From Dictyophora rubrovolvata (Eukaryota; Basidiomycota; Agaricomycetes; Phallales; Phallaceae): a stretch of DNA of 64,000 bases. The notes beneath the pieces are model-generated. The model was not told the DNA's origin, searched no databases, and worked only from the letters and a program-made list of their open reading frames with translations. Positions 2,213 through 44,095 of this stretch are shown piece after piece. The translations under genes were made by a program, and so were the position numbers. The DNA is taken from positions 1,674,001-1,738,000 of the forward strand of contig CP114126.1 of NCBI GenBank assembly GCA_029959195.1, written 5' to 3'. Within the stretch, counting starts at the first letter, position 1; each line of letters opens with the position of its first letter.

Positions 2213-3958
2213 ATGGTGCTTGTTCATTCTTTGCTTGCACTCTGGTTCTTGGGAACAATACTTGGAGCGACCGCCTCTCCCGCCTTGGTTTTGCATCGGC
2301 AACTGAACAAAGATGAAGTTCAGTCGCAGCATCTACCACAAAAAAGGGACATAGCACAAACTGGCATGACGTTTTCCCCCTCAATCAACTGGGAGATACT
2401 GGATGAAGATGTACATTCTTTGTTCAACGAGCTTTCAGCGAACAAGAGCCCGTCTGCTGTCCCAACGTCGCGTCCAGTAACTTCGATATCACAGTCAACA
2501 ATTTCAGCATCAACAAGCTCGAGATTGTCTTCCCAACAACCAACTTTATTATCCACTAGTCAAACCTCCACTCTTTTAATTGCGTCCTCTCGTTCAACCC
2601 CCTCCGCTCCTTTGACTTCGACTTCTTCCCTGTCATTCTCTCGTCCAGTCTCTACCACTCAACTCACAACAACTTCACATTCAACACCTATTGCTCCTTC
2701 CTCGACAAAACCTACGTCTCAGCTTTCCACAACACGACCCACAACCACGAGCAGTACCAGCATTAGTAGTCCCACCGCAACTAGTTCAATTCAACGTCCT
2801 ATTTTCGCAATCTACACAGACCAAAGTGCCAATGGCTTCCCATCTTCTCAACAAATATTTGTGAGTCAAATTTGGCATAATCTAAACTTATCGAAAATAT
2901 TCCAATGATAAAACTTATTCCTTTGTTCAGGGATTCAACGTAGTCATTCTTTCGTTCTTCCTCAGCACGGGCGCAGCTGATCAAGCCGCCGCTTGGGCTC
3001 AATTATCTGACTCAAAACGTGCATCCATTAGGGCCGATTATCGAACCAACGACATCTCATTGATGGTCTCTGTTTGTGGTGCGACCGACCTCCCCACAAC
3101 ACTTGGTGTTGATCCCGTAAAGTTTGCCCAAGCAGTGGCCGCCTGGGCTATACAATTTGACATGGATGGGGTAGACGTTGATTACGAGGTAATATATTTC
3201 GTGTTTTTTTTTTTCATTAACGCTTAATATCCTTTTTTTCCCCTAAAATAGGACTTCACGGCCGTATCGTCGGGCAGTGCATTACCTTGGCTAACATCAT
3301 TCACCCAGACATTGCGTGCCGCTCTTCCAGCCAATATGGTCCTCACACAAGCTCGTACGTGATGTGCTAATAGCGGCGTATTATCGAAGCAATTGTCCCT
3401 GACTCCTTTTTTTTTTAAGCTGTAGCGCCATGGTTGAGTGCCGGCCAGATTTACTTCAGCCTCGAGCAAAAAATTGGTGATTTGATCGATTGGTACAATG
3501 TACAATTCTATTCTCAGGGGAATCTATACACCACCTGCGATGGTCTCTTAACAAACTCTGGAGGTCCATTCCCCCAAACCTCGCTATTCGAGCTCGTCGC
3601 CGGAGGTATACCTCAAGAGAAATTAGTGATCGGCAAGCCTGCGTTACTCCGGGATGTAGAAAGTTTTGCTGTGAGACGAAGCATGGAAGACTCGGGTTTG
3701 CCTTCCCGAAGAGCCGCTACACCAACTCCTGCGTCCGTAAATACTAACGGCTTCGTGGACCCCAGTGTGCTATCCCAGTGTCTAGTTACTGCCGTAGCCA
3801 AAGGATGGAACGCCGGTGTCATGGTCTGGGAGGTACGAATCAATCTGCACTACCGGTGAACATTTGTAGCTAACAGTATTGCTATTTTTGAAAAGTATCC
3901 CGATGCCAACACTTCTTTCATAAAACAAGTCCGAACCCCCGCATTCCCGTTGAATTAG
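2213..3958 (+). CDS. Secreted GH18 chitinase with Ser/Thr-rich N-terminal region
   Basis: Glycoside hydrolase family 18 hydrolyses chitin by a substrate-assisted retaining mechanism outside the cell. Five exons: 2213-2860, 2931-3188, 3252-3354, 3420-3832, 3896-3958, giving 494 aa. Residues 1-22 form a signal peptide (hydrophobic LLALWFLGTILG then ATAS). Residues about 75-190 are almost all Ser/Thr/Pro, a likely O-glycosylated linker, unusual in lying before the catalytic domain rather than after it. The catalytic domain starts near FAIYTDQ. The GH18 signature DxxDxDxE is present as DMDGVDVDYE at residues 293-302, so the catalytic Glu is intact and is the last residue of exon 2. A later VSQIW-like strand is absent, but WYNVQFYSQGN and GVMVWEYPD match strands 6 and 8 of the barrel. 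Looks whole and active. The substrate (own wall or exogenous chitin) cannot be told. Confidence 0.92.
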
Positions 3959-5062: not shown

Positions 5063-5290
5063 TTAGGTAGTGCCTGTACTGGTAGTAGTGGTAGTACCAC
5101 CTAATCCGCCTAGAAGTCCGGTCAGCCCACCGAGCTCGCCTAAAATGCCGGTAAGTCCTCCCAAGCCTCCTGCTGGAGGAGCGGCAGCTTGGCGAGCAAC
5201 AAGGTCGTTGACATCAGAGTTGAGAGTTGGGGCAGAGTGGACGAGAGCGAAGGATAAAAGCAGGGAAATTAGCACTTTGGTCGGGATCAT
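5063..5290 (-). CDS. Small secreted Gly/Leu-rich protein, 75 aa
   Basis: Not recognised as a named family. A single exon starts with an ATG at 5290. Residues 1-20 are a clear signal peptide (MIPTKVLISLLLSFALVHSA). A short pro-region ends at LVARQ, and the rest is low complexity: repeated GGL, TGILGEL and TGLLGGLGG blocks, then a run of Thr. There is no cysteine, so it is not a hydrophobin or a disulfide-rich effector. The Gly-Leu repeats may form a flexible or aggregating surface peptide. The R-Q junction after the pro-region resembles the processing site of the Cys-rich family in this window, but the rest shares nothing with it. The gene is supported by the signal peptide and clean frame; function is unknown. 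Confidence 0.6.
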   Translation of the reverse strand: MIPTKVLISLLLSFALVHSAPTLNSDVNDLVARQAAAPPAGGLGGLTGILGELGGLTGLLGGLGGTTTTTSTGTT

Positions 5291-7578: not shown

Positions 7579-8088
7579 TCAAAGAAGCGTATCCAACTGG
7601 TGAAAAGTAACCGCGACTGTTTTGTCAACATCATTGGTTACATCGTCTACAGCTGTTCCAGCTCGTTTCAGCAAGGTATCTAATTGATGCACAGTAACAG
7701 CGACCGTTTTGTCAACGTCGTTCGTTACATCACCAACAGCCGTCTCGGCTCGTTTAAGCAGGGTGTCCAGTTGATGAAACGTGACAGCAACAGTTTTATC
7801 AGCGTCGTTCGTTATGTCGTCGGCGGCGGTACGTTTAAGCAACGTGTCTAGCTGGTGTACTGTCACCGCAACAGTCTTGTCGACATCACTTGTTATATCG
7901 CCCACGGCGGTTTTAGCTCGTTTGAGAAGAGTGTCCAATTGATGGAAAGTAACAGCGACAGTTTTGTCAACGTCGTTTGTTACGTCGTCCACAGCAGTCT
8001 CGGCTCGTTTGAGTAATGTATCCAGTTGGTGGACGGTGACAGCAACAGTTTTGTCAATGTCGCCCGTGACATCATCAACAGCGGTACC
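7579..8088 (-). repeat. Six tandem 81-87 bp coding repeats
   Basis: Tandem DNA repeats encoding the six KEP units. They have diverged at synonymous positions, while the encoded core and the KR sites are kept. This suggests selection on the protein or old amplification with purifying selection, rather than a fresh slippage array. Confidence 0.85.
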
Positions 8089-8154
8089 GGCTGGCAAAGC
8101 TTGGACAAGAAGGATAGAGACAAAGATTGAGGCGAAGTATTTGAGGGGAGTCAT
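7579..8154 (-). CDS. Secreted Kex2-processed repeat precursor (KEP-like), 191 aa
   Basis: A single exon starts at the ATG at 8154 (the frame is open to 8169 but only with TTG). Residues 1-20 are a signal peptide (MTPLKYFASIFVSILLVQAL, then PAG). The rest is six repeats of 27-29 residues with the core DKTVAVT[V/F]HQLDTLLKR. Each of the first five ends in Lys-Arg, the Kex2 cleavage site; the sixth stops after LDTLL. Processing would release peptides of about 25-27 residues such as AETAVDDVTNDVDKTVAVTF and its remainder. Position 8 of the core alternates V,F,V,F,V,F, so the array grew as a two-repeat unit. There is no Cys. The architecture matches fungal KEP precursors, a set that includes repellent-like peptides, mating pheromone precursors and some ribosomal cyclic-peptide precursors; which one is unknown. 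No tailoring enzyme of a known RiPP pathway (UstYa-like DUF3328, borosin methyltransferase) is visible in this window. Confidence 0.82.
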   Translation of the reverse strand: MTPLKYFASIFVSILLVQALPAGTAVDDVTGDIDKTVAVTVHQLDTLLKRAETAVDDVTNDVDKTVAVTFHQLDTLLKRAKTAVGDITSDVDKTVAVTVHQLDTLLKRTAADDITNDADKTVAVTFHQLDTLLKRAETAVGDVTNDVDKTVAVTVHQLDTLLKRAGTAVDDVTNDVDKTVAVTFHQLDTLL

Positions 8155-11245: not shown

Positions 11246-11696
11246 ATGCGTTCTCTCCTTTGTACAACATTGAGTTTAATAGTCGTCTCTGCTCTCTCTG
11301 TTCCTCTTGAGCCAAGGCAGACGGTAGCAAATTGTGACCTTGAAGGTAAGACAAATTCTAAATTCAGAACAAAAACTGAATTAAACTACGATAATTTTTT
11401 TAGCATGCACTATTGATATTTTGTCGTCCCCTGGAGCTGCTGCAACATGCGCTGAAGGAGGTCAATCCATTTCCTTTCGTATGTAAATTTCAACGTAACT
11501 AAATCACCTACTCTAGACCCCACTGCCTCTGCAAGCTGTCTCATAACTACCGTAAGCGTATTGACTCTAGTTGCTCTTCAGTTATCTTGAAAACCGTGCA
11601 ATTTTCATTTAGTTCACGGACTGCACGGGTTGTGATCCAACTGGTCTAGTAACATACCTGACGGGACTTATCCCTGCGGGAGCAACAGCAGCATGA
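11246..11696 (+). CDS. Cys-rich small secreted protein, divergent member of the 26.6-29.4 kb family
   Basis: Four exons: 11246-11345, 11404-11478, 11517-11551, 11613-11696. The protein is about 97 aa. The signal peptide is MRSLLCTTLSLIVVSALSVP; the mature part starts after LEPR-Q. Mature cysteines follow the pattern C-x3-AC ... TC ... SC ... DC-x2-C, six in all. The first exon is exactly 100 nt (33 codons plus one base) and ends just after the first mature cysteine, as in all three genes at 26660-29441, so the genes are homologous although sequence identity is low. The pattern recalls small fungal secreted proteins of the calcium-binding-protein (CBP1) type; that link is only a suggestion. 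Role unknown; a surface or effector protein is possible. Confidence 0.8.
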
Positions 11697-36392: not shown

Positions 36393-36498
36393 CGAGACTC
36401 GGATTTGATTTTGCTAGTCCAAATAGGGAGCAGGTGTGTACTTACCAATAGTTTCATTGAAAAAACAAAAAAACGTCATGCTTAAGTCACTCAAATAC

Positions 36499-36580
36499 CG
36501 ACAGTGTCTCGTGTGAGTGTTCTCCTTGTCACCCAAATGTCGGCGGTGTCTCATGTGAGTGTTCTCTCTGTCTCCCAAGA
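36499..36580 (+). repeat. Two tandem 41-bp units in promoter region
   Basis: Two copies at 36499-36539 and 36540-36580 share GTGTCTCRTGTGAGTGTTCT and most of the rest. They sit about 120-200 bases upstream of the PLP-enzyme ATG. Confidence 0.75.
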
Positions 36581-39022: not shown

Positions 39023-39580
39023 ATTATAATTAATGATTTCCTGGCTTTGGCTTGGCCTGGCTTGCACTGGCCTTGGCCCCTCCGAATCTCAAGCCGGGCC
39101 AGACTATGTCGGCTTTGGCTTGGCCCGGCTGGCTTTGGCCCAGGCCGGGGCTTCAAGTAAAGTGTCAGACTGCCTTGATTTGTCAGCCAAGCGCGAAAAA
39201 TCTCCTGCGCTTATTGGGCGCTTAATCGACCAATCGCAATAGGAATAGGAGTAGGCAGAAATTTTGATTTATTAGGCATTTCAGATGATTGGGCAGAGCC
39301 GGGTAGAGCTTTCAAACTTCTTTCAGTAAAATTTTGTTCCTCTAGTTACCAATATAAGGATAAATCATGTCTTCTCGGGCACTAACTGAAAGCCATGGCC
39401 TGGCGGCTTGGCTTTGGCCTGCCTAAATTCAAGCCGGGCCAATAAGCTCTGGCCTGGAACGGCCTTGCCTCGGCTTTGGCCTTGCCTCGGCTTTGGCCTT
39501 GCCTCGGCTTTGGCCTGGCCTCAGGCGGCCCGGCTTGGCTTGGCTTCTGGCTCAGAGCCAGGCAAATCATTAATTATAAT
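39023..39580. mobile_element. MITE-like 558-bp inverted-repeat element with GGCTTGGC-type interior
   Basis: The left end ATTATAATTAATGATTT followed by CCTGGCT is matched by its reverse complement at the right end (AGCCAGGC then AAATCATTAATTATAAT). Inside each arm are clusters of degenerate GGCTTTGGCTTGGCC words (39038-39145 and 39395-39565), including a triplicated CTTGCCTCGGCTTTGGC near 39465-39505. The middle is unrelated AT-richer sequence. No transposase is encoded. No clear target duplication could be fixed because the ends are AT-palindromic (a TTAA or TATA target is possible). The superfamily is unknown. Confidence 0.65.
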
Positions 39581-43162: not shown

Positions 43163-44095
43163 TCATGGATCGCAACGAGTTTCCAGCACTCGAATGAACC
43201 ACCTTATGGCTTTGCAATGCCACTCTTCCTGCTTTCGTTCGTCCTCAGCGGATTCCGACCTCGTTTCTCTGATCTCTTTCATCTCGTGTCGAATATCACT
43301 ACTGCATTGAGCAGCATCCTTCAAACGCAAAACCCTTGTAGGCTTCCATCCAACCGGAAGTCGTTGGTTTGTGAAGAAATCATCGACCAGACTTTGATCG
43401 ACATACCACTGCCCCTGTTCGTCTTGCTTGCCGAATATTTGTATGATCATTGCGAACTCCGCACGGCCCAGTTCTGCATGAAGAGGGTCTAGTGGGGCTT
43501 TGGATTCCAGCTCGCGTTCGACCCTATAGTTCGCTATGACGGATGTAGTGTACACGTTCTCGGACCCCGGGTGTAAAGGACAAGCGATACTTAAAAAGCG
43601 CCGCATCAGAATGGGATCGACTTTAATGGGTGCGTATTCGACGCCGTCGCATTCGTTTTTCTTCGGGTTGGCATCATCGTGTACCAAACTGGCATTATGT
43701 TCAATTAGATTGTGTTGAGCTGTTTCGTGCAGATCGAAAGGGTGTGTGAACCGCCTTCGAAGTAACGTGAATGATCCGACAGCCATGAAGAATGCAAATC
43801 CAGAGGAAAGTCCGAATGCCTCTTTCAAAGCTGTCATAATATCCGTGAAGGTTATTTGTCGACCGGAGCGAGGTAAATAACCATGGTTAGCAAGGGCATT
43901 GAGGGCGGGGCAGGGTGCACGAGAGCAGTCTGTCGATGGTGCGATGAAGCAATGTGGGTCAACATCGTCAGACGACGAAGACACCTGTATTGAGTTCTTC
44001 CCAAAAGGGCAGGAGGTAGGTTTTATGGGAGAGGTGACAGCAGAAGGGGATGACTCGGAAGGTTGGGAAAGCGGTACTATAATTGTGCCAGGCAT
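43163..44095 (-). CDS. Haem-thiolate peroxidase (chloroperoxidase / unspecific peroxygenase family)
   Basis: The family uses a cysteine-ligated haem and H2O2 to oxygenate or halogenate organic substrates. Single exon, 310 aa, ATG at 44095. The proximal haem-ligand motif is SRAPCPALNALANHGYLPR (PCP cysteine at about residue 61). The downstream acidic motif reads EHNASLVHDD, where the family usually has EHD or EGD, so the Asp is Asn here. RAEFAMIIQIFGKQDEQGQW and FFTNQRLPVGWKP match the distal helix region, with Glu in RAEF-type position. No N-terminal signal peptide is visible (MPGTIIVPLSQPSESSPSAV), unlike secreted peroxygenases; a hydrophobic segment FAFFMAVGSFTLL lies inside. A cytosolic or membrane-associated member is likely. 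The C-tail is charged. Confidence 0.85.
   Translation of the reverse strand: MPGTIIVPLSQPSESSPSAVTSPIKPTSCPFGKNSIQVSSSSDDVDPHCFIAPSTDCSRAPCPALNALANHGYLPRSGRQITFTDIMTALKEAFGLSSGFAFFMAVGSFTLLRRRFTHPFDLHETAQHNLIEHNASLVHDDANPKKNECDGVEYAPIKVDPILMRRFLSIACPLHPGSENVYTTSVIANYRVERELESKAPLDPLHAELGRAEFAMIIQIFGKQDEQGQWYVDQSLVDDFFTNQRLPVGWKPTRVLRLKDAAQCSSDIRHEMKEIRETRSESAEDERKQEEWHCKAIRWFIRVLETRCDP

What the first reader, a model, noticed from the sequence alone, without database searches (positions are those of the whole stretch)
7579..8154. Six-repeat Kex2-processed secreted precursor: possible unknown peptide family
Seen: a signal peptide, then six units ending in KR (except the last) with near-invariant core DKTVAVT[V/F]HQLDTLLKR. 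Known: fungal KEP precursors are cut by Kex2 into peptide pheromones, repellents or cyclic peptides. Inference: this gene releases five to six peptides of about 26 residues with an amphipathic HQLDTLL end. No RiPP tailoring gene is nearby, so a linear surface or signalling peptide is more likely. The sequence does not match any named KEP I know.
Basis: partly seen in the sequence, partly recalled or inferred. Interest (0 to 1): 0.85.

Follow-up and report, generated by a model that had tools for sequence, protein, structure and literature searches.

The report
Six-copy secreted fungal peptide precursor
A fungal gene encodes a secreted protein made of six near-identical segments that looks built to be cut into six short helical peptides; such multi-peptide precursors are already known in fungi, but this peptide sequence appears undescribed and its role is unknown.

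Summary
On the minus strand, 7582-8154 (stop 7579-7581) encodes a 191-residue protein: a likely signal peptide, then six units sharing a 25-residue core (19 of 25 positions invariant). The only dibasic sites are the five KR pairs after units 1-5. Unit 6 stops at ...HQLDTLL, the end that Kex2 cutting plus KR trimming would leave on the others. Selection acts on the protein: 25 of 25 third codon positions vary among units, against 6 and 4 of 25 first and second positions. No paralogue was found in its genome, which has a kexin gene; UstYa (cyclisation) matches lie only on other contigs. So this is a KEX2-processed repeat protein (KEP), most likely giving linear peptides of 25-29 residues. An isolated unit is modelled as one amphipathic helix (pLDDT 96.1), though the whole precursor is modelled poorly and as strands. 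A surface-active extracellular peptide seems likeliest (about 40%), ahead of signalling or biotic interaction. KEPs are a large known class (7,878 in one survey, 2,560 without homologues), so this is a new member of a known kind. Homologues could not be sought: no other fungal genomes are held here.

The parts
7579..8154 (-). whole coding sequence, 191 aa plus stop
   Evidence: single open frame; third codon positions vary in 25 of 25 core codons
8098..8154 (-). likely signal peptide, residues 1-19 (cut after VQA; after ALPA is also possible)
   Evidence: inspection: K5, then an apolar core YFASIFVSILLV, then VQA; no SignalP on hand
8011..8097 (-). unit 1, residues 20-48 (core 24-48)
8005..8010 (-). 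KR site 1
7924..8004 (-). unit 2, residues 51-77
   Evidence: residues 51-80 modelled alone as one helix, mean pLDDT 96.1
7918..7923 (-). KR site 2
7837..7917 (-). unit 3, residues 80-106
7831..7836 (-). KR site 3
7756..7830 (-). unit 4, residues 109-133 (lacks the two residues that follow KR in units 2, 3, 5 and 6)
7750..7755 (-). KR site 4
7669..7749 (-). unit 5, residues 136-162
7663..7668 (-). KR site 5
7582..7662 (-). unit 6, residues 165-191, ending HQLDTLL with no KR

Best explanation
This gene encodes a KEX2-processed repeat protein. The precursor enters the secretory pathway, a Kex2-type protease cuts after each of the five KR pairs, a carboxypeptidase removes the KR, and six linear peptides of about 25-29 residues, all ending HQLDTLL, are secreted. 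Each peptide probably folds, alone or at an interface, into one acidic amphipathic helix. My best guess for function is a surface-active extracellular peptide on hyphal or fruiting-body surfaces, loosely comparable to repellents or an accessory to hydrophobins. Shown: the gene, the repeats, coding selection, site placement, and a kexin gene in the genome. Inferred: cutting and trimming (about 85%), helix (about 70%), surface role (about 40%).
For: Five of five dibasic sites lie at unit borders and none elsewhere; unit 6 stops at the residue where the other five would end after KR removal. Strong constraint within units: 19 of 25 positions invariant although all 25 third codon positions vary; on 23-residue cores NG86 dS was not computable (saturated) in 12 of 15 unit pairs and 1.4-1.9 in the other 3, with dN 0-0.15. 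The two residues just after KR are among the loosest (AE, AK, absent, AE, AG), as expected of a cleavage border. A kexin exon matches PDB chains named Kexin at E about 1e-68 and a P-domain piece lies beside it. An isolated unit (30 residues) is predicted as a helix over residues 2-29, pLDDT 96.1. Hydrophobic moment peaks at 98-99 degrees in six of six units, and 7-27 of 2,000 shuffles reach the value at 100 degrees. Of six variable positions, four (3, 6, 10, 18) exchange only V, I, A or F; three of them lie on the computed hydrophobic face and position 18 at its edge, 61 degrees. At 98-100 degrees per residue, the two-residue deletion before unit 4 would turn the face by about 130-180 degrees in an uncut continuous helix, which fits separate peptides better.
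Against: The model of the whole precursor is not helical: low-confidence strands, mean pLDDT 53.6, the best of five models, and the centre TVAVTF is strand-prone by Chou-Fasman values. AlphaFold2 tends to favour helices for short peptides (recalled) and no control peptide was folded. When the moment is maximised over 90-110 degrees, 101 of 5,000 shuffles reach it, so the periodicity is only moderately significant; invariant V16 lies on the polar side of the wheel and L24 off the face. An uncut chain could also fold as hairpins, for which the register argument does not hold. No expression, peptide or homologue evidence. The genome has many hydrophobin pieces (26), so a repellent-type coat is not obviously needed. 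Published knockouts of six Coprinopsis KEPs showed no phenotype (PMC9769878). No Kex1 orthologue was singled out among 19 S10 carboxypeptidase pieces.
Confidence: 0.72

Rival explanations
1. The same KEP peptides act as signals or in biotic interactions (sensed by the fungus itself or another organism) rather than as a surface coat.
For: Published KEP knockouts in Coprinopsis had no axenic phenotype and the authors favour biotic interactions (PMC9769878). Near-identity of units with saturated synonymous sites fits a receptor-matched sequence.
Against: Long acidic amphipathic helices are not the usual short pheromone type (alpha-pheromones 9-24 aa, PMC6339444); no X-A/X-P dipeptide series (1 of 5 junctions) and no C-terminal W. 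No receptor evidence.
Confidence: 0.3
2. The protein is secreted and works uncut as a helical or strand repeat protein; KR is part of the repeat, not a cleavage site.
For: Weak similarity by repeat pattern to designed helical repeat proteins (best E 0.011); a low-confidence repeated-strand model of the whole chain.
Against: The terminal unit lacks KR, the residues after KR are among the most variable, and a two-residue indel at one border would break the register of a continuous helix; a kexin gene is present.
Confidence: 0.12
3. Precursor of a cyclised dikaritin-type product.
For: Precursor architecture is shared with dikaritins; UstYa-family genes exist in the genome (6 matched pieces on C3 and C4).
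Against: No UstYa match on this contig C10; no tyrosine in any unit (only in the signal peptide); units are much longer than the 8-14 residue dikaritin repeats quoted in PMC7329392.
Confidence: 0.03
4. Membrane-lytic or antimicrobial peptide.
For: Amphipathic helix of about 26 residues; cytolytic candidalysin is a KEP product (PMC9769878).
Against: Core net charge is -3 or -4 in six of six units, unlike typical cationic lytic peptides (recalled). Synthetic KEP peptides of Coprinopsis showed no antibacterial activity (PMC9769878).
Confidence: 0.07

Closest known systems
KEX2-processed repeat proteins (KEPs) of Agaricomycetes, e.g. Coprinopsis cinerea KEP 497993 and Lentinula edodes KEP 2599 (PMC9769878)
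   Same: Signal peptide, several similar units, dibasic sites between units, linear products expected
   Different: The peptide sequences quoted in the parts I read (parts 1-3 of 9 and the discussion) share no evident motif with this unit (compared by eye), are shorter, and are not described there as helical
Ustilago maydis Rep1 repellent precursor (described in PMC4617103)
   Same: Amphipathic, mostly tandem repeats separated by Kex2 sites; ten products are 35-53 residue amphipathic peptides
   Different: Units here are 25-29 residues; Rep1 products form amyloid-like fibrils, whereas the isolated unit here models as a helix; sequence relatedness not tested, no Rep1 sequence was held
Ustilago maydis Hum3 repeats (described in PMC4617103)
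   Same: Seventeen amphipathic tandem repeats of 31-36 residues, fourteen separated by putative Kex2 motifs
   Different: Hum3 also carries a hydrophobin domain; no hydrophobin is among the 25 of 33 Pfam families shown for this protein
Ascomycete alpha-pheromone precursors and alpha-like basidiomycete KEPs
   Same: Multi-copy precursor with KR borders
   Different: No STE13 dipeptide series and no C-terminal tryptophan
Dikaritin (ustiloxin-type) precursors
   Same: Precursor layout
   Different: No UstYa match on the same contig, no tyrosine in the units

Membership tests
KEX2-processed repeat protein (KEP) | N-terminal signal peptide | tested here: inconclusive
   Clear by eye (K5, 12-residue apolar core, VQA), but no SignalP was on hand
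KEX2-processed repeat protein (KEP) | At least four fragments on cutting at KR/RR and at least three similar fragments (pipeline rule quoted in PMC6339444) | tested here: met
   Six fragments, six with the same core; the FIMO pipeline itself was not run
KEX2-processed repeat protein (KEP) | No separated sequence over 100 aa and not all repeats shorter than 8 aa (PMC7329392) | tested here: met
   Units are 25-29 aa after trimming
KEX2-processed repeat protein (KEP) | A Kex2-type protease in the same genome | tested here: met
KEX2-processed repeat protein (KEP) | Peptides actually released | not testable with these tools
   Needs peptidomics
Dikaritin precursor | UstYa/DUF3328 gene nearby | tested here: not met
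   Six matched pieces, all on contigs C3 and C4; the gene is on C10
Dikaritin precursor | Tyrosine in the core for cyclisation | tested here: not met
   No Y in any of six units
Rep1-type repellent | Amphipathic tandem units separated by Kex2 sites | tested here: met
   amphipathicity only moderately significant (101 of 5,000 shuffles)
Rep1-type repellent | Units of 34-55 aa | tested here: not met
   25-29 aa
Rep1-type repellent | Sequence homology to Rep1 | not tested
Rep1-type repellent | Amyloid-like surface-active fibrils | not testable with these tools
   Needs synthetic peptide
Alpha-pheromone-like KEP | X-A or X-P dipeptides after the dibasic site | tested here: not met
   The two residues after KR are AE, AK, TA, AE, AG: 1 of 5 fits

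The most novel reading that the evidence does not exclude
The gene founds an undescribed family of secreted acidic helical peptides whose hydrophobic face follows an 11-residue, three-turn period (moment peak at 98 degrees, like the weakly hydrophobic lipid-binding helices of apolipoproteins or synucleins, a recalled comparison), released six at a time to coat lipid, air or wall interfaces of a fungus.
Probability: 0.15. Interest if true: 0.6.

Novelty: new member of a known kind. Interest (0 to 1): 0.3.

Why it matters
KEP functions are largely unknown (PMC9769878 abstract). This one gives a cleanly defined product (identical C-termini, computed masses), so it can be looked for directly by mass spectrometry, and its anatomy makes a specific physical prediction (an amphipathic acidic helix active at interfaces) that a single synthetic peptide can test.

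Tried and rejected
Pfam on the precursor gave 33 families at E up to 10, of which the best 25 were shown; four of those exceed their curated cut-off (Autoind_synth, YadA_stalk, DUF2894, HTH_5). I reject them as artefacts of summing a short match over repeats: they are mutually incompatible and their best stretches span only 28-60 residues. PDB matches (5 at E up to 10, best 0.011, a designed helical repeat protein) are by pattern only.

Homologues: none in viral contigs (19 stretches matched a pattern, none confirmed); one in prokaryote genomes (36 stretches matched a pattern, 1 confirmed), L019 from Pelagibacterium montanilacus, 28% identity, E 9e-6 relative to candidate stretches only, taken as compositional and not followed. 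These collections are viral and prokaryotic, so they do not test conservation in fungi. No paralogue was found in the own genome (the search scores only its best candidates).

The V/F alternation over units (V,F,V,F,V,F) suggested duplication of a two-unit block; the parity grouping ranks only 3rd of 10 possible splits, so this is not supported. Kex1: S10 pieces were found (19) and three regions fetched (ORFs), but no orthologue was assigned. Neighbouring ORFs: 26 window stretches were given to Pfam (10; 8, beside two kexin pieces of L009; 8); two repeat ORFs with other starts, so 24 distinct ORFs. Of the 26, 8 had a match at 0.001 or better: RAI1 twice, Aminotran_5, Peroxidase_2, Say1_Mug180, Glyco_hydro_3_C and zf-MYND, and Glyco_hydro_18. 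Gene models across introns were not built. A paper search for repetitive secreted proteins in Agaricomycetes (listing only) gave nothing that I judged relevant; a search for repellent, KEX2, mushroom and amphipathic together (listing only) gave two papers already in hand. Of the 11 papers listed for Rep1 repellents I opened passages of one new one, PMC4617103.

Full report
WHAT IS THERE. On the minus strand of the window, 7582-8154 encodes a 191-residue protein (stop 7579-7581). Residues 1-19 look like a signal peptide (by eye; SignalP not on hand). Six units follow, each with a 25-residue core from TA to TLL: 19 of 25 positions are invariant, and the variable ones are V/A, D/G, V/I, N/G/S, V/I/A and V/F. 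The only dibasic pairs in the precursor are the five KR pairs, one after each of units 1-5, each preceded by LL. Unit 6 ends HQLDTLL-stop.

IS IT REAL. Among the cores all 25 third codon positions vary, against 6 of 25 first and 4 of 25 second positions. Mean amino-acid identity between units is 0.87, against a mean of 0.50 and a maximum of 0.63 in 2,000 simulations that scatter the same differences over codon positions. On 23-residue cores, Nei-Gojobori dS could be computed in only 3 of 15 unit pairs (1.4-1.9) and was saturated in 12, with dN 0-0.15. The duplications are therefore probably old and the units have been held nearly constant as protein. Of 365 ORFs of at least 60 aa scanned in the window, 24 have three or more [KR]R sites; the best identity between fragments is 0.93 here and 0.33 in the next. 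No paralogue was found in its 28.2-Mb, 11-contig genome.

HOW IT PROBABLY WORKS. The placement of KR, the missing KR on the last unit, and the loose dipeptide just after each KR (AE, AK, none, AE, AG) are what a precursor cut by Kex2 and trimmed by a carboxypeptidase should look like. The genome has a kexin gene: one open stretch matches PDB chains named Kexin at E 8e-69 to 9e-69 over 180 residues, the neighbouring stretch carries part of a P-domain, and an overlapping ORF continues into a membrane-spanning stretch (by eye). Two clear DPPIV_N loci (plus one weak piece on another contig) and 19 S10 carboxypeptidase pieces are present, without an assigned Ste13 or Kex1. UstYa matches (6 pieces) lie on contigs C3 and C4 only, so a linear product is more likely than a cyclised one.

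THE PEPTIDE. Trimmed units are 25-27 residues (29 for unit 1), pI 4.05 in five and 4.56 in one; the core net charge is -4 in four units and -3 in two. The hydrophobic moment peaks at 98-99 degrees in six of six units; 7-27 of 2,000 shuffles reach the value at 100 degrees, and 101 of 5,000 when the maximum over 90-110 degrees is used for the unit average. Residues 3, 6, 10, 14, 21 and 25 form the face with T17; 18 lies at its edge, while V16 and L24 lie off it. The isolated unit is modelled as one helix at pLDDT 96.1; the whole chain is modelled badly and as strands (53.6), and the centre of the unit is strand-prone by Chou-Fasman values. If the chain stayed uncut as one continuous helix, the two-residue deletion before unit 4 would rotate the face by roughly 130-180 degrees at 98-100 degrees per residue, so the repeat was not kept in register; this favours separate peptides, though hairpins in an uncut chain would escape the argument. 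An acidic amphipathic helix suggests interface activity rather than classical cationic membrane lysis (general knowledge); I give the surface role about 40%.

COMPARISON. KEPs were defined by signal peptide, repeats and Kex2 sites (PMC6339444, passages and one section). A survey found 7,878 KEPs in 1,345 of 1,461 strains, with 2,560 lacking homologues (PMC7329392, section 6 and passages). KEP-derived linear peptides were detected in Coprinopsis, Lentinula and Pleurotus, and six Coprinopsis KEP knockouts had no phenotype (PMC9769878, parts 1-3 of 9 and the discussion). Rep1 and Hum3 of Ustilago carry amphipathic repeats with Kex2 sites (PMC4617103, passages). This gene meets the tested KEP features, with the signal peptide judged by eye. 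It is not filed as a repellent: unit length differs and homology was not tested. It fails the tested dikaritin and alpha-pheromone features.

NOVELTY. The strings HQLDTLL, LDTLLKR, DKTVAVT, AVTFHQL, AVTVHQL and DDVTNDV occur in no paper of the open-access full-text library. The class is well known; the peptide appears to be a new member.

CHECK.

Noticed in passing
window 5066-5290, minus strand: ORF for a 75-aa protein with a likely signal peptide followed by a Gly/Leu-rich repeated stretch (GGLGGLTGILGELGGLTGLLGGLGG) and a Thr-rich tail; 2.3 kb downstream of the KEP on the same strand; no Pfam match at 0.001.
   Followed up: partly
window about 2213-3860, plus strand: Probable secreted GH18-type protein with a Ser/Thr-rich linker: a first exon with a signal-like start, then a stretch matching Glyco_hydro_18 at E 6.8e-4, below the curated cut-off.
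   Followed up: partly
window 11246-11416, plus strand: Possible first exon of another small secreted protein (MRSLLCTTLSLIVVSALS...), so several secreted-protein genes may lie close together; no Pfam match at 0.001.
   Followed up: partly
window 43166-44095, minus strand: Peroxidase_2 family protein (E 1.3e-44), a haem-thiolate peroxidase type (recalled); 35 kb from the KEP.
   Followed up: no
window 36486-36578 and 39461-39522: Two short tandem arrays, 42-bp unit x 2.2 and 17-bp unit x 3.6.
   Followed up: no
own genome contigs C3 and C4: UstYa-family pieces, with paired copies near C3:646 kb and C3:707 kb, that may mark dikaritin-type clusters.
   Followed up: no
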